Below are positions 9,027-18,508 of a stretch of 64,000 bases of DNA, piece by piece (position 1 is the first letter of the stretch; every line of letters begins with the position of its first letter). The notes under the pieces were generated by a model, which was not told the origin of the DNA, did not search any database, and worked only from the letters and a program-made list of their open reading frames with translations. Both the position numbers and the translations under genes were made by a program. This stretch comes from Pseudomonas folii (lineage in GTDB: Bacteria; Pseudomonadota; Gammaproteobacteria; Pseudomonadales; Pseudomonadaceae), in contig NZ_JACONW010000004.1 of NCBI RefSeq assembly GCF_014357575.1, forward strand, positions 1 through 64,000. Direction: 5' to 3'.

Positions 9027-10283
9027 ATGCCGTTGATGTTTTCGCGTTCTGCCCTCTCCTGCGCGCTGGCGCTAGCTGTCACGCTGGGGGCGAGTTCCCT
9101 CGCTCAGGCTGCCACACCCGACGCACGGGTTCAGTCGGCAGCCGAGCAATACAAGGAGCCTGCGCTCAAGTTGCTGGAGCAATTGGTAAACATCGATTCC
9201 GGGTCGGGTTACGAGCCAGGTTTGACCCAAGTGAGCGCGATCGTTATCGAGGCATTAAAAAAGCTCGGAGCGACCATTGAAACCGTCCCCAATACCGCGC
9301 CCGACAAGAGCAAACACGTGGTTGCAACGTTCAAAGGCACGGGTAAAGCAAAAATATTGCTGATGGCGCACATGGATACCGTGTTCAAGGAAGGTTCGGC
9401 CGCTGCCCGGCCTTTCCATATCAAGGACGGTCGCGCTTACGGGCCTGGGGTGATGGACGATAAAGGCGGGATTGTCGCTGGCATCTACGCGCTGCAGATT
9501 CTGAAAAACCTCAATTTTACCGACTACGCGCAGATCACTTTCTTGCTGGACGCCAGCGAAGAGACGGGTTCAGCTGCCGCGACCGAGCTGATCAAGGCAA
9601 CGGCCAAACAACATGACGTGACGTTGAACCTTGAGCCAGGCCGTCCAGCCGATGGCCTGGTCGTGTGGCGCAAAGGCAGTGCCACGGCAGAGGTAGAGGT
9701 CAAAGGCAAAGCCTCGCACGCAGGTGTTGCGCCAGAACTGGGGCGGAACGCGGCCATGGAAGCGGCCCACCAGATCCTGCAGTTGGGGCAACTGGGCGAT
9801 GCCGAGAAGAAGACCACCATCAACTTCACCACCATTAATGCCGGTGACCGGACTAATGTCATTCCCGATCATGCCATTGCCAAGGCCGATGTTCGTGCAG
9901 CGGTGCCCGAAGAGTTCGACCGCATCGAGAAAGACCTTGCGCGAGTCTCGGCAGATAAACTGATCCCGGATACCGAAGTCTCGACGCGCCTGGTTCGTGG
10001 ACTGCCACCCATGCCGCAGACTGCGGAAACCGACAGGCTCGTGAACATCGCTCAGGGTATCTATGGCGAACTGGGGCGCAAACTGACCATCGAAGGCAGC
10101 GGCGGAGCGGCCGATGCAAGCCTGGCGGCGAGTGTCGGTGTGCCCACGCTGGACGGCTTCGGCATCGTCGGCGGCAACATTCACACCCCCGAAGAGTACG
10201 CCGAAGTCGAAAGCGTCTCGCCCCGCATTTATCTGCTGACGCGCATGATCATGGAGCTTTCTGGCAACCCGTCCAAACCATAA
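9027..10283 (+). CDS. M20 family glutamate carboxypeptidase (CPG2-like), exported
   Basis: A 418-residue metallopeptidase that closely follows carboxypeptidase G2, which removes C-terminal glutamate from folates and related amides. There is a signal peptide to about residue 29 (ASSLAQA). The zinc site is intact: His116 in MAHMDTV, Asp144/145 in MDDKGG, catalytic Glu178 and Glu179 in EETGS, Glu203 in LEPGRP, and His386 in NIHTPEEYAE. A dimerisation lid domain lies between, with KASHAGVAPELG carrying the usual SHAG histidine. The ATG at 9027 is preferred over a TTG at 8994 because it gives a compact signal peptide. It would act in the periplasm and is monocistronic. Substrate specificity is inferred. 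Confidence 0.85.
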   Translation: MPLMFSRSALSCALALAVTLGASSLAQAATPDARVQSAAEQYKEPALKLLEQLVNIDSGSGYEPGLTQVSAIVIEALKKLGATIETVPNTAPDKSKHVVATFKGTGKAKILLMAHMDTVFKEGSAAARPFHIKDGRAYGPGVMDDKGGIVAGIYALQILKNLNFTDYAQITFLLDASEETGSAAATELIKATAKQHDVTLNLEPGRPADGLVVWRKGSATAEVEVKGKASHAGVAPELGRNAAMEAAHQILQLGQLGDAEKKTTINFTTINAGDRTNVIPDHAIAKADVRAAVPEEFDRIEKDLARVSADKLIPDTEVSTRLVRGLPPMPQTAETDRLVNIAQGIYGELGRKLTIEGSGGAADASLAASVGVPTLDGFGIVGGNIHTPEEYAEVESVSPRIYLLTRMIMELSGNPSKP

Positions 10284-10331
10284 CTGACGAGCTTTGGCGC
10301 TGGGGCCTTACGAACGGTAAGGTACCCCACG

Positions 10332-11198
10332 CTACCAGTCGCCCCGCCACTGCTCGACAAATTCAGTGTCTCTGGACAGACCGACTCTCTCCCCCAATTG
10401 GTACAAAGCCTCCATCAGGGACTCGCGCTCCACTGTTTCAATCTCATCTTCGAACTGGTTAATGTGCAGCACCGCTTTTTCGAACAGCGGCAGCGCGAGC
10501 TCAGCCGCATCCGCGCCCTGTAATTTCAGCACTTCAACATAAAGCGCAGAGACCACAGGATAAATTTTAGCCAGAAGCTCCTCATCCCCTTCCAACAACT
10601 GAAGTCCCGTTTTTACATCCGGCTCAGACATCGAAGCCTCAGCCTTTTCCTTGCGGGACAAGAGCAGCGCCTCCGGGGTTTTTAACGACGGGAAAATAAA
10701 TTGCTTGCTGTCATCCCAATTGATACCCGTGTCGTAAAAAAAACGCAGTCTTTCTTGCAGCTTGACCGGGTCGCCGTTAACGCCGCAGAAGTCATGACCT
10801 TCAATGATCTCAAGATCTTTCTCAGGACATAGATCAGACTTCAGCACCGTCGCCCCGACACTCGAGTAACGGTCGCTCAGTTCTATGAGGTCAGCGGTGT
10901 ATGTGCCCTCTGACACCCACCTGAAATCCAGCATTTTTTTCAGTATCGGGCGTTCGTTGATCTTCACTTCACCTGCGGTCAGGAATCGCATGAATAGTTT
11001 CTTGACCGACTTTTCGGCAATAAACAGGCAGAACACAATGGGGCTGTCATTTAAATCAACGCCCGCCCATTCATCGGCCGTTCTGAAGGTGTCAAAAAAC
11101 TCCATCAGGCCGTTTTCTCGCATCTGGGCAAGGGTATAGATGCCCTCAGCGACTTCGACAACGAGCACGGCATCATCAACCCACTTGATTGTTTTCAC
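10332..11198 (-). CDS. Uncharacterised protein with DUF5713-like C-terminus
   Basis: A 288-residue cytosolic protein without membrane segments. The first ~180 residues (IKWVDDAVLVVEVAEG and on) are not recognised. The last ~85 residues, ending INQFEDEIETVERES and then WRGDW, have the layout I associate with DUF5713. The GTG at 11198 is chosen because AGAGG stands 10 bases upstream and it leaves 25 bp after the previous gene's stop; the longer frame starting at 11276 would overlap that gene by 53 bp. It is last in a minus-strand run of uncharacterised genes. The function is unknown; an immunity-like role is possible given the surroundings. Confidence 0.6.
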   Translation of the reverse strand: MKTIKWVDDAVLVVEVAEGIYTLAQMRENGLMEFFDTFRTADEWAGVDLNDSPIVFCLFIAEKSVKKLFMRFLTAGEVKINERPILKKMLDFRWVSEGTYTADLIELSDRYSSVGATVLKSDLCPEKDLEIIEGHDFCGVNGDPVKLQERLRFFYDTGINWDDSKQFIFPSLKTPEALLLSRKEKAEASMSEPDVKTGLQLLEGDEELLAKIYPVVSALYVEVLKLQGADAAELALPLFEKAVLHINQFEDEIETVERESLMEALYQLGERVGLSRDTEFVEQWRGDW

Positions 11199-11223
11199 TG
11201 TCCAGACGCCTCTTTTAATAGGG

Positions 11224-12168
11224 TCAACCTTGCGGTTGAGCAACCAGTTTCGCTTCTTCCATGAACCCGTGTTCAATCAGGTAGCGCTTCCCACCGCTGA
11301 TGACATAGCTCTTGAAACCTTCCCGCGACAATTCAAAATCTGCAGTGGCGAGGTTACGAAAAAGCGTAGGACGCGCGCTCTTGTAAAGAAACAGGATGTC
11401 GTCTCCGACTTTACCTATCAGTGGCTTGGCATAGGTGGTGTTCTGGCATTCCATGATTTCCCCGGTGCAGTGCCCGCTTAGCCATTCAACCTTGGTGAGG
11501 TCGATGTATGGGAGCGACCATTCACCAATGAACAGATGCTGGTTGTCCCTGGCATACGAGTAGCGCTGTAACTTGTCTTTGGCATTGAGATTGACCGCTG
11601 AATAGTCACCGAAAGGAAAAATGACTTCAAAGCTCTTTGGATCGGCGCCTTTAATTCGGGTAGCACCGAGATATACCGTGGTGCTGTCCATTGAGTAGGC
11701 AGCGACTTGATTCGCCTGATCAGGCGTCAATCCAGCCTGACTGGAGCGTGCGACACGAAAGTGTGCGGCATCGGTACTGAGCAACCAGAATCTGCGTCGT
11801 TCGATAGTTTCGTGGATTTGCAGCCTGGCAGGCAGGTAACACACCGGATTGAGCCCCTGCGCTACTGATCCAACGCCTGTACCGCTACAAGGACTTTCGC
11901 GCTCGCGGGACACTCCACCCAAGTACACGCGGCCATCAACGATCTGGAAACGGTCTTTTCGCACGGCATCTTTTTCCTTGGAACAGTCGCGCTCCCGATC
12001 AGGTGGGCGAGGGTTCGCGAAGGTCTCGGCAAAGGTCGTATCAAACCAGCTTTCGGTACAGCTGAACGTCTCAAACGCCTGACTCTTCAGCGGCAGCCAC
12101 AACGTAAAACACAGCACCACTATTTGCGCCGTCGAACAGCGTTCCAGGGCACGACTTCTGTTTGGCAT
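11224..12168 (-). CDS. DKNYY-repeat exported protein
   Basis: A 314-residue protein with a signal peptide (IVVLCFTLWLPLKSQA, mature from about residue 32). The mature part carries DKNYY-type repeats: TVYLGATRIKGADPKSFEVI (about 178-197) followed by YSYARDNQHLFIG, the same 'Y-A-x-D-x-x-x-x-Y' rhythm seen in the family; earlier DGRVYLGG is a weaker copy. These repeats are common in proteins near toxin/immunity loci but have no known activity. The start at 12168 is favoured by GGAG ten bases upstream; longer starts at 12180 and 12189 exist. It lies 54 bp downstream of the hydrolase/phosphotransferase fusion on the same strand, so co-transcription is likely. Confidence 0.65.
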   Translation of the reverse strand: MPNRSRALERCSTAQIVVLCFTLWLPLKSQAFETFSCTESWFDTTFAETFANPRPPDRERDCSKEKDAVRKDRFQIVDGRVYLGGVSRERESPCSGTGVGSVAQGLNPVCYLPARLQIHETIERRRFWLLSTDAAHFRVARSSQAGLTPDQANQVAAYSMDSTTVYLGATRIKGADPKSFEVIFPFGDYSAVNLNAKDKLQRYSYARDNQHLFIGEWSLPYIDLTKVEWLSGHCTGEIMECQNTTYAKPLIGKVGDDILFLYKSARPTLFRNLATADFELSREGFKSYVISGGKRYLIEHGFMEEAKLVAQPQG

Positions 12169-12222
12169 TTCCTGCTCCATGCACAACAACCTGTTGACGC
12201 CGCCAAGGGTTGGCCCGCCTGT

Positions 12223-14658
12223 TCACTCGACCAGTGTTAACGCACCATCGACATACCGCACTTCGCGCCCGAGCCACGCAGGGTCGACATCGGGCATCAC
12301 CGCCGAGGGTTTCCGCAGCTCACGCAACAGGGTCGAACCATGGGACAGACGCCCTCCCATGCGTGCAATCACCGCACGGGCATTCTGATAATGCGCATGA
12401 CGCCCGGGGTCCAGAGTGTCTTCCAGCAAAATGTCCTCGCCCAGAACGCCCTGGACCTGCCCCGGATAAATCATGAACCCGGTGGCGTGTTCGGTTCCCT
12501 CACTGCCGTCCTGCCAAAAACTGCCAGCGCGGTTGCGAACATCCCCATGCGGCGCAAACCAGTACGCTCGGTCAGCCATTGGCATGGCGTGATGCAGGCG
12601 AAAAAACACCCGCATCAGGTTATCGCGATACCACTCCCGCACCTGCAAGTAATAGCCACGCAGACCGGGCAAACCTGCACAATGCGCCAGTTTTATAGCG
12701 TTCGACCACGCCGGGAATGCCTGCAACGGCAGGTCTGTCAGCGCCGGACGTGCAGTCGCCGGATCGGTTTCCCACGGCAACCGATGAGGACAATGTTCAA
12801 GGTCATGGTAGGCGGTCGGCGGGCGCCCCAAGAGGTCGCCGCCACTGCTGGCAAGTGCGGTGGCAATGCACAGGTTGCCCTGCACCACAAACACATAAAA
12901 GCGGGTAAACCAGTCGGCCAACTGCCTGCCATCAGCACCTTGGGCCTTAAGGGTGCCGAGTTCCCGGTCAAAACGCTGTAATTGCTTTTCCAGCGTCAGC
13001 AAATGCCCGCGCGCGATGCGTTGCATGCGCAGGAACAGTGGCAGCGAACGCAGCACTCGCATGGGCCGCCAGGGCAGATGCGGCGTTGCGCCACCGACTT
13101 CACCGGCGTAGCTGCTGGAGGCAACGCCCCAATCGGCCAGGCGAGCGAGAAACAGATCATTGTTGATATAGGAGGCACCGCCAAACAAGGCGGTAAACGG
13201 TTCGTTGTCCTGCAATACCCGAGGATCCCAGCGCGCCATGATTGCCGGAATACTGCCCGCAGCGCGGCGCTGAGCGTGCTCCACGAGGCGGCTGGGCTGC
13301 GGCGGCAGGATCTCGGCGATGTTGGCGGCGGTCAAGTGACGACGCCAGCCGTAATCACTGATCGGTCGATACTGCAGCAGCCACAGTTGGCGGCCATCCC
13401 ACGCCCACTCGACATCGCCCGGCACATAGTGAAAGACCCGCAATACACCTTGCAGAAAGTCCCAGAGTTTTTCTTGGGTCAAACCGTGAGCTGACTTGAA
13501 CGCGTGACTGCTCCAGGAATCACCCAGACGGGAAATGACTGCGCGCTCAGGGCTTGCCTGGCCATCAGCCAGAGACTCAAGGTGGCCTTCAACCCACTCC
13601 AGCTCGACGGCCAAGTGACGAACGAAAGCAATCCCGGAAAGCACCGGTGTAATGAACCGCTGAACAACCACTTCTTCGACGCCGGCTTCATGCAGTTCGG
13701 CGACACGCGCAGAGACGTTGGGCGCAGGTTCGCGCAGGAAAGTGGTACTCAGGCCCGCGTTCGCAGAGTCGGCCTGATCCTCGCCAAAGCTGGAGGAGCG
13801 AACCGCCCAGATGGCATCCGGCTGGCTGACAAGAAATGCAGACAGACCGCACTCGTCACCTTTTACCAGTGACAACGCTGGCGGTACCGGTTGCCCCGCG
13901 CAGGCAGCCAGACGCAAGCGCCCACCCTTGGTATGGGCGACAAATCCGCGCTGCTTCGATTCCAGCCATTGTACAAACGCGGCGGGCGCATCGATCCACG
14001 GATAATGTCCCCATCCTGGCTGCAAACTGATGGTCAGATCAGCGCGGGCCAGAATGGCCGACCAAGCCGCGGCCTGCTCAATGCCCAACACCCCATCCTG
14101 ATCGCCCCAGACCAGTTCGATCGGGTCTTGCACCCACTCCAGCAAAGGCAACGCGGTGTCGGCCCGCAACAGATCCCAATACGGCACGAACGAACGGCAG
14201 CGCGCATACCCTTTACCCATACGCTGATAGTGACTGGCGGGCCAGGTCTGCCGGGAGAACTTGCGGGCAAACAGTGCGGGCTTGTTGGCCAATAACCAAT
14301 GGATGGTCTTGCGAATCGGCAGTGGCGACATCAACGCCGGCAAACGACGCTGCCAGAGAAACGCCCCCACCGGCGCCAGCAATACGCTCCTGCAGAAATG
14401 CCCCGGGCGACGTTGCAGCGCATGCATCACCAGCAAGGCATTGACCCCCACCGCCACAATTGCGCTGCCGCTCACAGTCATCGTTAACAGTGCCTCGGCG
14501 TAGCTCGCCAGATCTTCGCAAGGCGGCTGAGGGTTGCTGCCGAAACCTGGCAACTCCAGGGCGATGACCTGATAGTGCTCGAAGTGAGGCAGCGCGTCGT
14601 CCCACCACTCGGCGCTACTGCCGTTGCCCGCCAGCAGATACAGAAGCGGCTTGCTCAT
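12223..14658 (-). CDS. Alpha/beta-hydrolase fused to PEP-synthase-like phosphotransferase
   Basis: An 811-residue three-part protein. Residues 1-235 have the alpha/beta-hydrolase fold: LLAGNGSSAEWW oxyanion strand, the nucleophile elbow as G71-V-N-A-L, acid in VWGDQDG (Asp186/188) and His218 in GWGHYPW. The elbow Ser is Asn73, so ordinary hydrolase activity is doubtful. Residues ~245-435 match the PPDK/PEP-synthase ATP-grasp domain (AVRSSSFGEDQAD at 285-297, VVVQRFITPVLSG, LLQYRPI at 427-433). The end (760-811) is the swivelling phosphohistidine domain, GGRLSHGSTLLRELRKPSAV with His773. The architecture recalls rifampin phosphotransferase, which phosphorylates a small molecule using ATP. The substrate is unknown. 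A small membrane protein is encoded 36 bp upstream. Confidence 0.8.
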   Translation of the reverse strand: MSKPLLYLLAGNGSSAEWWDDALPHFEHYQVIALELPGFGSNPQPPCEDLASYAEALLTMTVSGSAIVAVGVNALLVMHALQRRPGHFCRSVLLAPVGAFLWQRRLPALMSPLPIRKTIHWLLANKPALFARKFSRQTWPASHYQRMGKGYARCRSFVPYWDLLRADTALPLLEWVQDPIELVWGDQDGVLGIEQAAAWSAILARADLTISLQPGWGHYPWIDAPAAFVQWLESKQRGFVAHTKGGRLRLAACAGQPVPPALSLVKGDECGLSAFLVSQPDAIWAVRSSSFGEDQADSANAGLSTTFLREPAPNVSARVAELHEAGVEEVVVQRFITPVLSGIAFVRHLAVELEWVEGHLESLADGQASPERAVISRLGDSWSSHAFKSAHGLTQEKLWDFLQGVLRVFHYVPGDVEWAWDGRQLWLLQYRPISDYGWRRHLTAANIAEILPPQPSRLVEHAQRRAAGSIPAIMARWDPRVLQDNEPFTALFGGASYINNDLFLARLADWGVASSSYAGEVGGATPHLPWRPMRVLRSLPLFLRMQRIARGHLLTLEKQLQRFDRELGTLKAQGADGRQLADWFTRFYVFVVQGNLCIATALASSGGDLLGRPPTAYHDLEHCPHRLPWETDPATARPALTDLPLQAFPAWSNAIKLAHCAGLPGLRGYYLQVREWYRDNLMRVFFRLHHAMPMADRAYWFAPHGDVRNRAGSFWQDGSEGTEHATGFMIYPGQVQGVLGEDILLEDTLDPGRHAHYQNARAVIARMGGRLSHGSTLLRELRKPSAVMPDVDPAWLGREVRYVDGALTLVE

Positions 14659-14694
14659 GTGTGCGCCTCAAGCAAGGTAACCGGGCCCATTCGG

Positions 14695-15177
14695 TCAGAC
14701 ATTGCTGGGTCCCTGGGCGACGGCGCCACGTTGATAATTACGGTCATGGCGATACAGCCACACCAAAGGTGGTAGCAGCATGAGCAGTGCAAAGGTGTCG
14801 AGCCACAGGTGCGACCAGACCCCGACCTGAATGGAAAGCAGTATGTCCTGGGGCGCCCAGAGCACCAGACCGGCGATCAGCCAACCCCAGACCATCGGTG
14901 TTTTCTGACGATTGCCAATGTGCACCAGGGCCAGCATGTATAACGAATAGCTCTGCAGCGTCGCACCAAACAACGCGAGCCACCACGTCTGTTGGGCTCG
15001 GGCAGACGTCGGCGCCGCGCCGGTCCAGAAAACCTCTTCAAGGGAGCTCAGGTAGTTATCAAACAGGCCTGAAGGAGCGGCCCATGTGAGCACCACGCTC
15101 GCCAGCAAATGCCCCGACACCATGACATACAGCCACATCACCAACGAGCGTCGGCGAGTCAGAAATGAGTACGACAT
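14695..15177 (-). CDS. Four-helix membrane protein of unknown function
   Basis: A 160-residue protein with four hydrophobic stretches: about 11-34 (LVMWLYVMVSGHLLASVVL), 68-83 (WWLALFGATLQSYSLY), 95-115 (VWGWLIAGLVLWAPQDILL) and 123-141. A short charged tail ends in HDRNYQRG. No family was recognised. The start at 15177 has AGGA eight bases upstream; the frame extends to 15210 without a ribosome site. It lies 36 bp before the hydrolase/phosphotransferase fusion on the same strand, so the pair is probably an operon, and the protein may anchor or transport for that enzyme. That link is inferred from position only. Confidence 0.65.
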   Translation of the reverse strand: MSYSFLTRRRSLVMWLYVMVSGHLLASVVLTWAAPSGLFDNYLSSLEEVFWTGAAPTSARAQQTWWLALFGATLQSYSLYMLALVHIGNRQKTPMVWGWLIAGLVLWAPQDILLSIQVGVWSHLWLDTFALLMLLPPLVWLYRHDRNYQRGAVAQGPSNV

Positions 15178-15303
15178 TCTGCGTCCTGCAGCGTCCGTAA
15201 AAGACACCATTTAAAGGTTTACCAACGGGCTAAATACAATGGACATCGCCCGCAAGGGGCTGATCGAGAAACCTTGCGACGTAACCGCATCGCGGCTCAA
15301 GCA

Positions 15304-16152
15304 TCAGGTTTTAGCCAACGCCCTTTTAACAGCCTCGGCTTTGAGCGCTTTGGTTTTACCGTGCTCTGCCAGCAACTCCAGCATGTTTTTACTGGCCTTG
15401 GGATGGTTGAGCAGGTACTCGTGAAGGAGTTTGTTGCCAGCCCGAATGAGCTGCAAAACAACCGCTGGATCGTTGTAGTCTTCTTCGAAGCGCATCATCT
15501 GGCTTTCCAGCCGATAGTGCCCTTCAGCGGTTTGCTCCGAAGTGTCCTGAGCGAAAATCTGCACCCGTAATTCATCCTGCTCCAGCACGTGTACAAATAA
15601 GAACACGGTAGTAACAAAGGTCAGGGATTTACGATTGGTCGCGGTTTGCGGAAGGTACACCTGTGAACAGAAATGGAACATTTGCCCGTTACAGGTGGGG
15701 ATACTGGCCTCCGACGCATTCCATCTGGGTGGGCGACGTAGAAAGAGAATGTCTTTCTTTTTGATCATGTCAACGCAAACAGGCCGCGTGGCCTCCCCTT
15801 TGCGGCTGTACGTCACTTCTCCATTTTGTGAGAGCGGGTGGTAAATCAGCGTTCCACTGTTCAGTTGTTTCTCTATGACCAGGTAATGAACCCGGAACAA
15901 TTCACCATATTCAGGGTGGACACAGTCGCTGACCTTGCCGCCAAACAGATAGAGTTCCCTTTCAATCTGGCTGCCCAGAATCTCCAGGTCTGTCTGCTCG
16001 AGTCTGATCCGCTCGATAAATACAGCCTGGTTGCCTTGTATCTCTGGCCAGGGAATATCCAGCAACGGATCCTTGCCGTTCATGTCTACGCAGATCATGG
16101 CTGCTTCAGGTGAATTCTTCACGCTATCGACCTTTCCCAATGAGCAGAACAT
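15304..16152 (-). CDS. Uncharacterised cytosolic protein
   Basis: A 282-residue protein without signal or membrane segments and without a motif I recognise. It has an acidic/aromatic middle (FEEDYNDPAVVLQLIRAGN near 233-251) and a helical, lysine-rich end (KALKAEAVKRALAKT). Codon usage and GC look like its neighbours. The start is doubtful: AGGAG directly abuts the ATG at 16152, leaving no spacing, while an internal GTG ten codons later has AAAGG at a normal distance. It is one of a train of minus-strand genes with 50-90 bp gaps. The function is unknown. Confidence 0.6.
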   Translation of the reverse strand: MFCSLGKVDSVKNSPEAAMICVDMNGKDPLLDIPWPEIQGNQAVFIERIRLEQTDLEILGSQIERELYLFGGKVSDCVHPEYGELFRVHYLVIEKQLNSGTLIYHPLSQNGEVTYSRKGEATRPVCVDMIKKKDILFLRRPPRWNASEASIPTCNGQMFHFCSQVYLPQTATNRKSLTFVTTVFLFVHVLEQDELRVQIFAQDTSEQTAEGHYRLESQMMRFEEDYNDPAVVLQLIRAGNKLLHEYLLNHPKASKNMLELLAEHGKTKALKAEAVKRALAKT

Positions 16153-16206
16153 CTCCTGGTATTAACAGGCCTGAGCGCAGACGCGACGCGATCAGGCCAG
16201 ACACCG

Positions 16207-16638
16207 TTACTTCTGGTCGAGGTACTCAGTCAGGAACCACTGTGGACGGCCAGTCATGGACAACTCGTCGTTGTACCTGACGTGCAGCTCCTGGCTTTCA
16301 CCTGGCAAGTACAGTTCGCCAGAGTCCCGATCAAGTCGCAATACTTCGTAGGACTTGCCGTCCTTCTGGACGGAATAGCGTGTGTCCTTGTTGGTTTTTT
16401 CCACTTTCATTTTCTGAATGCGCAAATTCCACTCGTGATCAACACCCGCTACCTGCACCAACGCCTCATTGGCAGAGCGATCGCCGATGCGCAGGACCCA
16501 GACCTTCGCGCCCTTCTCGCCGCTGTAAGCGAACATTTTATCAGCGACTTCCGGGCGGGCTTCTTCAGCCATCGCAACGGATGAACCCAACAGGCAGACA
16601 CTGAAAAGTACTGCCCAAACACTCCTGATTACTGACAT
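16207..16638 (-). CDS. Small exported protein of unknown function
   Basis: A 143-residue protein with a signal peptide (residues 1-24, VWAVLFSVCLLGSSVAMA cut before EEARPE). The mature part is polar and beta-rich (KVWVLRIGDRS, VLRLDRDSGELYLPG) and has no cysteine, so it is likely a soluble periplasmic protein. No family was recognised. It is spaced 54 bp from the next gene in the minus-strand train and 53 bp from the preceding DUF6891-like gene, consistent with co-transcription. Confidence 0.65.
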   Translation of the reverse strand: MSVIRSVWAVLFSVCLLGSSVAMAEEARPEVADKMFAYSGEKGAKVWVLRIGDRSANEALVQVAGVDHEWNLRIQKMKVEKTNKDTRYSVQKDGKSYEVLRLDRDSGELYLPGESQELHVRYNDELSMTGRPQWFLTEYLDQK

Positions 16639-16691
16639 CGATTGTCTTCCTTAGCGAGAAAAAGTCCGGGGATAATACATAAATAAAAACA

Positions 16692-17288
16692 TTAATGAAG
16701 GGTGGGCAACGCATCCAGTCCACTGTCAGGGACTGGACTTCTGCGCTGCCACTTGAAGTTGTGAACTTCCACACATCGCTCGACGGTTTCATTCCAGACG
16801 ACTTCAAACCCAGCAGTTTTCAACACTGTGGCCAACCGTTGCCCCACCTTGAGAGCCGTTGCAGGATCATCATTGACCGCCCCAAAGGCGATGAACAGAA
16901 CATCGCTCTTAACAACGCACTCGACGTCTTGCCCATGGTAAAAGCAAAAGCCGTGGTAATGATCATCGGGGGCCTCGTGAAGCACTTCGGCCACTTCCGT
17001 GAACCCATCCGACGCTTCATAGCCTGCATTCTGGAGGGCACAGATACCGTCTTCATGGAGGTGATAGAACACTTCATCGAGTCGATCGCAGGCAGTCACC
17101 TCCGGCCAGTCACGCTCTGCGTCAAGCTTGCGTTGCAACTCCGGCAGGATCGACGCCTTGAGCGCGGCCACGTCACAGTGATCGTCAATGATGTCATCGA
17201 CCATCCCGTAGATTTCTTCGTACGTATAGAAGCCGGACCACACCCACATTCGGATGCTGTCCGCAACGTGTCCATTACTGTCTGCCAT
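16692..17288 (-). CDS. DUF6891-like protein
   Basis: A 198-residue acidic cytosolic protein. The layout fits DUF6891: an N-terminal helix with WVWSGFYTYEEIYGMVDDII, a DRLDEVFYHLHEDGICALQNAG segment in which a short protein is scanned for a Gly-Ile core, then FCFYHGQDVE followed by LFIAFGAVNDD and a final RRSP. I recognise the F-Y-H-x-Q-D and L-x-I-x-F-G elements. The start at 17288 has GAGGTG upstream and removes nine residues from the longest frame (17315). The family has no established activity; members often sit in accessory regions with immunity-like genes, as here. Confidence 0.6.
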   Translation of the reverse strand: MADSNGHVADSIRMWVWSGFYTYEEIYGMVDDIIDDHCDVAALKASILPELQRKLDAERDWPEVTACDRLDEVFYHLHEDGICALQNAGYEASDGFTEVAEVLHEAPDDHYHGFCFYHGQDVECVVKSDVLFIAFGAVNDDPATALKVGQRLATVLKTAGFEVVWNETVERCVEVHNFKWQRRSPVPDSGLDALPTLH

Positions 17289-17501
17289 TGACACCTCGCC
17301 AGCGTAAACAATCAATAAAGACCGGAGGTTATCCGGCGTGTATACCGGACGCTAATACCGTTGTCTCTGGCTATTGATGCACCCTTAAAAACTGCACATC
17401 TTTGCAAACGCCTGTCATGGACTCATGAACCGGGCTGTAGTTCTGGATGCGCATGTTTTTTTACCCAGGAAAAATCTCCAGCGGGTGCGAAATCAATTCG
17501 C

Positions 17502-18071
17502 TCATACCCGGTCGATCCTGAAATCCCATTGATCAAAATTCGCCTCATCACTCAACACCGGCAACGACTCAACGGCATTGATACCCAACTCATACACGTT
17601 GAGTGGGAAGCCTTCATGCAACTCGCTGAAACCAGTGATGCTCAATGCGTAGAGCCCCGGTGAAATATCCAGATAGTCGTTATTGCCCAAGCTGTCCGAT
17701 AGCCGGGCTTTGTAATTCAGAAAGAACTCAGGATCCCAATCCGTCAGGGCATGCAGATCGGCAACAATCAGCAGGCCGCTGATGACTCTCAGTGGAATAT
17801 CCGCATATCGAAACACCGCCTCATTGCCTTGTTCAAAGGGCAACTTTCGCTCATCGCGCAAACGAAACACATAGTCTTCTTCGGGCAGCGGATACAGGGG
17901 CACAACCGCCCCACTCTGGACCGCCAACCGTCCTGTTTCGCTTTGTTCGATGAACACCTCAAAGAGGCTGGAATCATCCGGACAATGCTCAGCAGTAAAA
18001 CGGCTCAACACGAGCGGGTCAAAAATGACCACGCCGGGGCTGAAAGTTTCAATGTTTGCCTCAGTTTTCAT
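17502..18071 (-). CDS. Uncharacterised protein
   Basis: A 189-residue acidic protein with no signal peptide, membrane helix or cysteine-rich motif. It looks beta-rich, with segments such as AVVPLYPLPEEDYVFRLRDE and DISPGLYALSITGFSE, a pattern of short strands that also occurs in ComJ-like and several immunity proteins, but the match is too weak to name. It is the most upstream gene of the minus-strand train (18.1 to 10.3 kb). A 430-bp gap with a REP separates it from the divergent hscC gene. Confidence 0.55.
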   Translation of the reverse strand: MKTEANIETFSPGVVIFDPLVLSRFTAEHCPDDSSLFEVFIEQSETGRLAVQSGAVVPLYPLPEEDYVFRLRDERKLPFEQGNEAVFRYADIPLRVISGLLIVADLHALTDWDPEFFLNYKARLSDSLGNNDYLDISPGLYALSITGFSELHEGFPLNVYELGINAVESLPVLSDEANFDQWDFRIDRV

Positions 18072-18218
18072 CCGTCACTTCCACAGGTTGATGCTGATAT
18101 TAAGTTCATGACCGATGTGTAGGGCCGAATTTATTCGGGACGCGGCATCACAGGCCATAAACAGACTGCGTATGTACCGGCCCTTCGCGAATGAATTCGC
18201 TCTTACAGGAGTCACTTA

Positions 18219-18319
18219 TGACGTGGGACCGGCTTCAGCCGGGAAGAGGCCGGGAAACACGCTGAATCTTTATCTACAGAAATACCGCCTTCCCGCCTAA
18301 AGCCGGTCCAACGTCGTCA
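18219..18319. repeat. REP doublet, family B
   Basis: Arms tgacgtgggaccggctt...gccggg and an inverse copy (cccgcctaaagccggtcc) flank a ~50-bp centre. Related copies lie at 42021-42126 and 47233-47329; this one has diverged by several bases. It sits in the 437-bp gap before hscC. The rest of that gap shows only a possible 16-codon frame at 18446-18496. Confidence 0.8.
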
Positions 18320-18508
18320 ATCAGATTGCGGACAAACATGGAATCTCCCACCGAATACTCAAGCGTGCCAGTATTGAACCATCATTTCAAAACGTGATCT
18401 CAAATGGCTACGTTCAGCCTGTGCCGTTCAAGGAAGAATGCCTTCATGACAGCCCTCAGTCTGATTAACAGTAATGCGCCGTCGAGCCAGGGATAAGGGA
18501 ACACATTG

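What the first reader, a model, noticed from the sequence alone, without database searches (positions are those of the whole stretch)
12223..14658. Alpha/beta-hydrolase with Asn at the nucleophile elbow fused to a PEP-synthase-like phosphotransferase
Seen: a hydrolase-fold domain whose elbow reads G-V-N-A-L (Asn73 for Ser) but which keeps Asp186/188 and His218, then an ATP-grasp domain with AVRSSSFGED and LLQYRPI and a phosphohistidine domain with His773. Known: rifampin phosphotransferase and PEP synthase use ATP-grasp plus swivelling His domains to move phosphate to a small acceptor. Inference: the hydrolase-like part may serve as the acceptor-binding module, giving an undescribed small-molecule phosphotransferase or a phosphorylated metabolite pathway.
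Basis: partly seen in the sequence, partly recalled or inferred. Interest (0 to 1): 0.78.

Follow-up and report, generated by a model that had tools for sequence, protein, structure and literature searches.

The report
Hydrolase-capped swivel-histidine small-molecule kinase
A Pseudomonas gene encodes a large enzyme that looks able to move phosphate from ATP, via a swinging histidine arm, onto an unknown small molecule, and it carries at its front a hydrolase-shaped domain that has lost its cutting residue yet is kept by evolution.

Summary
An 811-aa ORF lies on the MINUS strand at 12223-14658. It joins an alpha/beta-hydrolase fold (1-237), a PPDK_N-type ATP-grasp (238-436), a helical central region (437-725) and a C-terminal PEP-utilizers/swivel domain (726-811). 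The 110 best-matching loci that I kept all carry the fusion (97 distinct sequences): mostly Pseudomonas, with Burkholderia, Chitinimonas and Rhodoferax. At residue 73, 84 of 97 have Asn, 12 Ser, 1 Gly, with at least 5 switches on a quick tree. Leu75 is invariant, so Ser hydrolysis looks dispensable, yet the domain is under strong purifying selection. Counterparts of rifampin phosphotransferase (RPH) Lys22, Arg117, Thr136, Arg666-Glu667 and His825 are invariant here (K244, R287, T306, R674-E675, H773). The central domain's homology to RPH rests on the RE pair and is not proven. In most loci the gene follows a small membrane protein, often also an SDR; the window lacks the SDR. New variant of a known kind.

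The parts
12223..14658 (-). CDS, 811 aa, alpha/beta-hydrolase-like + ATP-grasp + central helical + swivel phosphohistidine fusion
   Evidence: ORF and translation; Pfam; orthologues
13948..14658 (-). alpha/beta-hydrolase-like domain, residues 1-237
   Evidence: Pfam Abhydrolase_1; VIA-align 2 Z about 22, 2.8 A over 231 residues vs P. fluorescens esterase 1va4/3hea
14440..14442 (-). Asn73 codon at the nucleophile-elbow position (G71-V-N-A-L75)
   Evidence: 84 Asn, 12 Ser, 1 Gly of 97; L75 97 of 97
13351..13947 (-). short PPDK_N-type ATP-grasp domain, residues 238-436, with K244, R287, T306, E417, Q429, R431
   Evidence: Pfam PPDK_N; hhalign 244-434 prob 98.9; conservation; alignments
12484..13350 (-). 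central, mostly helical region, residues 437-725, proposed acceptor site
   Evidence: AF2 helices; RE co-alignment with RPH-like proteins; no significant hhalign match
12634..12639 (-). R674-E675 codons, counterpart of RPH Arg666-Glu667
   Evidence: 97 of 97 invariant; co-aligned; window test 13 of 5000 shuffles
12226..12483 (-). swivel phosphohistidine domain, residues 726-811
   Evidence: Pfam PEP-utilizers 741-787
12340..12342 (-). His773 codon, predicted phospho-carrier
   Evidence: 96 of 96 sequences that reach it, one of 97 is cut by its contig end; aligned with RPH catalytic His
14695..15210 (-). upstream 171-aa membrane-type protein ('c4'), likely same operon (36-bp gap)
   Evidence: homologue within 2.5 kb upstream in 70 of 80 named loci; no Pfam match for the window copy or the two orthologues scanned

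Best explanation
It is a single-chain, RPH-type small-molecule dikinase with a catalytically degenerate alpha/beta-hydrolase domain fused in front. Proposed cycle: (1) ATP binds in the ATP-grasp (K244, R287, T306, E417, Q429, R431); (2) His773 on the C-terminal swivel domain takes the beta-phosphate, giving AMP and Pi; (3) the swivel domain moves to the central helical domain, where R674-E675 hold the phosphohistidine and phosphate passes to a hydroxyl-type group on an unknown small, probably hydrophobic, acceptor; (4) the hydrolase-like domain, kept but mostly without the Ser nucleophile, helps bind, deliver or gate that acceptor, or holds the enzyme at its partners. Shown here: domain order, conservation of the named residues, selection on all four parts, and gene partners (a membrane-type protein, often an SDR). 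Inferred: that it phosphorylates at all, that AMP is the product, that the central domain binds the acceptor, and the role of the hydrolase fold.
For: All 110 loci kept carry the fusion. K244, R287, T306, E417, R431 and R674-E675 are 97 of 97, Q429 at least 90%, His773 96 of 96. MAFFT of 12 of the 37 A2 rows with 10 relatives puts these on the RPH counterparts; T306 is Ser in the four Roseobacter proteins, R674 is Lys in five relatives, E675 is Asp in one. The roles are those reported for RPH-Lm (PMC4844700 passages). hhalign of the ATP-grasp against an alignment of five relatives led by a Rubrobacter protein: prob 98.9, E 3e-17, first pair K244 on Lys32 of its GxK motif (position read). The His domain is C-terminal as in RPH. 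The RE window is the best match in the central region, 3.0 vs -9.4 for the next start, reached by 13 of 5000 shuffles (6 query rows, 7 relatives, windows picked by me around the motif). Median omega 0.10-0.11 in all four parts, 16 pairs chosen by me.
Against: The central domain has no significant profile match to any of the relatives tried: RPH pair, Rubrobacter, Ruegeria, L130, Deinococcus, M. avium, PpsA-like. The RE window loses significance when the R and E columns are left out (1314 of 5000 shuffles). When five relatives that I had first left out are added, two PEP-synthase-like proteins have no residue at RE (expected), the Deinococcus protein has RE, but the M. avium protein shows R-G and the PpsA-like protein V-E there. 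RPH Lys670 is Arg678 here. The swivel match is modest: prob 71-82 against the five-relative alignment, 78-84 against L130, 6.5-11 against the RPH pair. In the AF2 model the His773 loop (767-788) and 291-306 are below pLDDT 50 and pTM is 0.52, so domain contacts are unknown. NCBIfam's RPH model does not list the protein at E up to 1. No biochemical or phenotypic data and no substrate; the SDR is absent from the window, and both partners from the 8 Burkholderia loci.
Confidence: 0.6

Rival explanations
1. The hydrolase-like domain itself is the acceptor-binding module and the central helical region is only a linker.
For: The domain is fused in all 110 loci kept, is under purifying selection (median omega 0.113) and lacks Ser in 85 of 97 sequences, which fits a binding role.
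Against: The central region is as conserved as the rest (median identity 0.853) and holds an invariant RE pair that aligns with the RPH acceptor-site pair; a mere linker would not need this.
Confidence: 0.15
2. It is an ATP-driven ligase like PigC/RedH: the phosphohistidine activates a carbonyl for condensation and no phosphorylated product is released.
For: Weak matches to the PigC and RedH models (E 0.006); a PEP/pyruvate-binding protein beside pigD, taken here as PigC, co-aligns at the ATP-grasp, RE and His positions. That these ligases act through phosphohistidine is recalled.
Against: Scores are far below the PigC and RedH cut-offs (14.6 vs 1300 and 1350). I noticed no pigment or pyrrole genes among the neighbours that I read (parts of 8 loci, one), but I did not annotate the other loci.
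Confidence: 0.12
3. A bifunctional hydrolase-kinase: the front domain still cleaves an ester or thioester and the back part phosphorylates the product.
For: Asp188 and His218 are 97 of 97; 12 of 97 members have Ser at position 73; fold matches esterases with Z about 22.
Against: 85 of 97 lack the Ser; Leu75 replaces the second small residue of the elbow in all 97, also in the Ser members; N, S and G interchange at least 5 times on a quick tree, as expected of a site without catalytic duty.
Confidence: 0.07
4. A phosphohistidine regulator, or a degraded PEP synthase relative, without a small-molecule acceptor.
For: The gene is patchy (33 of 149 sampled genomes of the genus, 3 of them split) and the swivel domain is short.
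Against: The catalytic positions are conserved across genera; median omega about 0.1 in all parts.
Confidence: 0.06

Closest known systems
Rifampin phosphotransferase (RPH; PMC4844700)
   Same: ATP-grasp, then central domain, then C-terminal swivel His; counterparts of Lys22, Arg117, Thr136, Glu297, Arg666-Glu667 and His825 conserved
   Different: Extra N-terminal alpha/beta-hydrolase-like domain; short ATP-grasp N-lobe; smaller central and swivel domains (Glu to His 98 residues here, 158 in RPH-Lm); Arg678 where RPH has Lys670; central domain not alignable by profile
Two-component phenolic dikinases HpeHI, CreHI, PpsAB (PMC12167813, passages)
   Same: Same three functional parts and presumed ATP to AMP chemistry
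   Different: Split over two proteins, no hydrolase domain, and only a weak profile match of a PpsA-like protein (prob 14-23, swivel part only), without a clean RE match
Prodigiosin ligases PigC / RedH
   Same: Same ATP-grasp and C-terminal His, and an RE pair at the same aligned place in the one protein compared
   Different: That protein has no extra front domain (its catalytic Lys is near its N-terminus); NCBIfam scores far below cut-off
Rv2047c-type proteins (SDR plus PEP-utilising domain, operon with pks12; PMC7058343, passages)
   Same: An SDR combined with a phosphohistidine-type protein; here the SDR is a separate gene upstream in 50 of 80 loci
   Different: Described with an epimerase and a PEP-utilising domain only; its identity with NCBIfam PRK05865 is recalled, and no sequence comparison with P0001 was made
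Roseobacter plasmid fusion TM1040_RS03520
   Same: Close relative of the ATP-grasp, also with the short N-lobe (hhalign prob 97.7)
   Different: Rhodanese and YidC-like (60KD_IMP) domains in front instead of a hydrolase fold; KE instead of RE

Membership tests
RPH-type small-molecule dikinases (broad sense) | Catalytic Lys, Arg and Thr of the ATP-grasp | tested here: met
   K244, R287, T306 97 of 97 and co-aligned
RPH-type small-molecule dikinases (broad sense) | C-terminal swivel domain with catalytic His | tested here: met
   PEP-utilizers over cut-off; H773 96 of 96
RPH-type small-molecule dikinases (broad sense) | Central acceptor domain homologous to the RIF-binding domain, with the Arg-Glu pair | tested here: inconclusive
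   RE pair co-aligned, 13 of 5000 shuffles, but 1314 of 5000 without R and E; mixed in five added relatives; no significant hhalign match
RPH-type small-molecule dikinases (broad sense) | ATP to AMP plus Pi plus phosphorylated acceptor | not testable with these tools
   needs assay
Rifamycin-inactivating phosphotransferase (strict) | NCBIfam NF041857 cut-off 999 bits | tested here: not met
   not listed at E up to 1 (cut-off seen)
PEP synthase | TIGR01418 cut-off 739.75 bits; His domain in the middle | tested here: not met
   21.1 bits; His domain last
Serine alpha/beta-hydrolases | Alpha/beta-hydrolase fold | tested here: met
   Pfam over cut-off; fold match Z about 22
Serine alpha/beta-hydrolases | Ser nucleophile at the elbow, G-x-S-x-G | tested here: not met
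   GVNAL in the window; Asn 84, Ser 12, Gly 1 of 97; Leu75 97 of 97
Prodigiosin ligase PigC / RedH | NCBIfam NF052631 / NF052632 cut-offs | tested here: not met
   14.6 vs 1300 and 14.6 vs 1350 bits

The most novel reading that the evidence does not exclude
A new class of dikinase in which a dead alpha/beta-hydrolase domain has become the receptor or gate for the acceptor. It would work with a membrane-linked SDR and a small membrane protein to reduce and then phosphorylate a lipid-like alcohol, a Gram-negative parallel to the SDR plus phosphohistidine protein beside the mycobacterial phosphomycoketide synthase.
Probability: 0.12. Interest if true: 0.72.

Novelty: new variant of a known kind. 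Interest (0 to 1): 0.48.

Why it matters
RPH-like dikinases were described as drug-inactivating enzymes and as starters of phenol breakdown; distant branches are expected to have other substrates (PMC4844700 and PMC12167813, passages). This branch keeps the catalytic residues and adds a front domain that has lost its own chemistry but not its selection. It has a recurring neighbourhood in common, genetically tractable pseudomonads, so substrate and role can be tested. Public annotation of a Burkholderia copy says only 'PEP-utilizing enzyme', and the listings of my paper searches showed no description of the fusion (open-access library only).

Tried and rejected
PEP synthase and strict RPH membership: rejected by curated cut-offs. 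Defence-system protein: no PADLOC match at E up to 1. RNA element nearby: none at gathering scores in 10000-18500. Consensus promoter or terminator in 11900-15800: no promoter-like site, terminator-like sites at chance level, 5 vs 4.6 expected. Link to a known pathway through neighbours: no downstream cluster is shared by most of the 80 loci, though some recur in part of them (for example c6 in 21 loci). The membrane N-terminus of c2 was sought in 274 class genomes and found in 6, none of which has a full-length fusion protein; I opened five of those six regions and saw, mostly by eye, regulator, DCC1-like and DUF4166-like genes near some of them, so c2 can live apart from the fusion. This did not reveal a substrate.

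Distant relatives: no full-length homologue except the window's own among 274 class genomes and 398 phylum genomes; 3 of 248 family genomes, all in the genus. These searches scored at most 2-4 candidates per genome, so misses are possible.

Structure: the full AF2 model (37 sequences) reached pLDDT 72.1, pTM 0.52. The Foldseek and VIA-align lists shown were filled by the hydrolase domain, so the other domains were not tested by fold.

Rows dropped: one search used 10 relatives. Of what I had fetched I left out five that one search then added (L184, L185, Deinococcus, M. avium, PpsA-like). I never aligned the split Variovorax (L164) and Thermomicrobium (L182) genes, and the ATP-grasp halves from L131 and Deinococcus were only looked at. 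Adding the five made the RE support less clean, and I lowered the main odds from 0.62 to 0.60.

Paper searches that led nowhere.

Full report
What is there. Window 12223-14658, minus strand, holds one open frame of 811 aa (P0001). Pfam gives Abhydrolase_1 at 4-56, PPDK_N at 281-309 and PEP-utilizers at 741-787, each over its curated cut-off. In alignment A2 all 37 members match PPDK_N and PEP-utilizers and 33 of 37 match Abhydrolase_1 at E up to 0.01. I divide it into hydrolase-like 1-237, ATP-grasp 238-436, central 437-725 and swivel 726-811. The borders are mine, set from the AF2 secondary structure and the alignments.

Who has it. In 149 genomes of the window's genus, 33 carry it: 30 in one frame, 3 (G007, G010, G034) split over two frames. 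A scan of genome contigs confirmed 136 loci and kept the best 80: 69 of these are labelled Pseudomonas, 8 Burkholderia, and one each Chitinimonas, Rhodoferax and 'gamma proteobacterium L18'. These 80 plus the 30 best are the 110 loci, all full-length by its criterion (more than 750 residues matched); weaker matches were not looked at. The window's own is the only full-length match among 274 class genomes and 398 phylum genomes. At family level 3 of 248 genomes have it, all in the same genus. Three Burkholderia plasmid records hold it too; the one opened is annotated 'PEP-utilizing enzyme'.

The hydrolase domain. Its model matches esterases, BioH and D14-type receptors with Z 21-22 and 2.8-3.1 A over about 230 residues. 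Asp188 and His218 are invariant in 97 of 97 distinct sequences. Residue 73 is Asn in 84, Ser in 12, Gly in 1, and the residue two further on (Leu75), which is small in working hydrolases (recalled), is Leu in 97 of 97. On a quick tree the letter at 73 changes at least 5 times, and the Chitinimonas, Rhodoferax and Burkholderia branches have Asn, so Asn is probably old (the root is only a midpoint). Median dN/dS is 0.113 in this domain against 0.103, 0.107 and 0.096 in the other three, for 16 pairs that I chose among the 97 (15 where dS was saturated; single pairs reach 0.29). So the domain is kept, but probably not for Ser catalysis.

The phosphotransfer machinery. RPH-Lm uses Lys22, Arg117 and Thr136 around ATP, His825 as carrier, and Arg666-Glu667 for transfer to rifampin. 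Lys22, Arg117, Thr136, Arg666 and Glu667 were tested by mutation there, while Glu297 was dispensable (PMC4844700, passages read). I aligned 12 family members with 10 relatives: RPH-like proteins from S. microflavus and L. innocua, a Rubrobacter protein, L130, four Roseobacter proteins, the PEP/pyruvate-binding protein beside pigD in Pseudoalteromonas (taken as PigC) and a M. branderi protein. K244, R287, E417, Q429, R431 and H773 fall on the same letter in 10 of 10. T306 is T in 6 and S in the four Roseobacter proteins. R674-E675 is R-E in 4, K-E in 5 (Roseobacter and L130) and R-D in M. branderi (letters counted). R678, where RPH has Lys670, is K in 7, R in 2 and A in 1. The L. innocua protein runs one residue short of the paper's numbering in these stretches after Lys22. 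K244 and not R247 is the likely catalytic Lys: hhalign pairs K244 with the GxK Lys of the Rubrobacter-led alignment, prob 98.9.

Five further relatives, first left out, were added. Two full-length PEP-synthase-like proteins (L184, L185) share the ATP-grasp letters (T306 is S in L184) and the His, and have no residue at RE, as expected if they lack that domain. Of three swivel-side proteins, Deinococcus has R-E, M. avium R-G and the PpsA-like one V-E at that place.

How firm is the central domain? hhalign finds no significant match there. In a window test with 6 query rows and 7 relatives, whose windows I picked around the motif, the RE stretch (665-688) scores best of all windows, 3.0 against -9.4 for the next, and 13 of 5000 shuffles reach it. 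Without the R and E columns it is still the best window, but 1314 of 5000 shuffles reach that score. So the claim rests on an invariant RE pair at the right place on a predicted helix (667-691), not on proven homology.

Neighbours. In 80 named loci, by tblastn at 1e-6 within 2.5 kb upstream, the small membrane-type protein (c4, window 14695-15210) is present in 70 and an Epimerase/DUF1731 SDR (c2) in 50 (Pfam of one c2). In 26 of these 50 the SDR has its own membrane-type N-terminus; in 22 a c4-like part and the SDR lie in one open frame (22 of 22 checked); in Chitinimonas (L107) the SDR is separated from the fusion gene by DUF4166 and Polyketide_cyc2 genes and no c4 was found; one (L082) is partial. 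The 8 loci with neither are the 8 Burkholderia ones. The window has c4 but no c2. The nearest SDR elsewhere in its genome is 40% identical. Between c4 and the fusion gene the window keeps the letters ATGTCTGAC, close to the c2 start of L045 (ATGTCTGAT), and some relatives without c2 start their fusion gene with such letters, so it may be a remnant of a lost c2. In six other class genomes the c2 N-terminus occurs without the fusion gene.

Reading. An RPH-like small-molecule dikinase with a dead hydrolase cap is the best account (0.60; 0.62). HpeHI and relatives show that such enzymes also start catabolic routes (PMC12167813, passages); VadK shows that PPDK relatives take on new roles (PMC12636432 and PMC13400623, listing and start of abstract only). 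Rv2047c joins an SDR and a PEP-utilising domain and lies in an operon with pks12 (PMC7058343, passages); this is a lead for an SDR-kinase pathway, not a test of one. No paper describing this fusion turned up in the listings; the library is open-access only.

Noticed in passing
L159:4321-8172 and L130:133-3341: A Ruegeria plasmid protein fuses rhodanese, a YidC-like 60KD_IMP domain, PPDK_N and PEP-utilizers; L130 has a dikinase-like gene directly next to a gene whose protein looks YidC-like by eye.
   Followed up: partly
L173, L174, L175, L176, L177 (unnamed class genomes): Recurring but incomplete sets of regulator, DCC1-like protein, membrane SDR (c2) and DUF4166-like protein, without the fusion gene; function unknown. 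Pfam was run only on the L173 regulator and the L175 and L176 SDRs; the other names are by eye.
   Followed up: partly
window 14659-14705: Possible remnant of a lost SDR gene's start (ATGTCTGAC) overlapping the end of c4, before the fusion gene.
   Followed up: partly
G007, G010, G034: Three of the 33 genus genomes carry the gene split over two open frames, perhaps decaying or sequencing errors.
   Followed up: no
window 11224-12189: Gene just downstream encodes a DKNYY-family protein (Pfam PF13644); near neighbours 10332-11276, 15304-16152 and 16207-16638 have no Pfam family over cut-off.
   Followed up: no
L163:1-4657: M. avium plasmid with separate pyruvate phosphate dikinase and PEP-utilizing genes around an acyl-CoA dehydrogenase, possibly another split dikinase.
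   Followed up: no
L055, L064, L067, L104, L105: Long antisense open frames (cluster c18) lie over the SDR/fusion stretch in several loci; probably shadows of high GC, they displaced real genes in my first synteny table, which one search replaced.
   Followed up: partly
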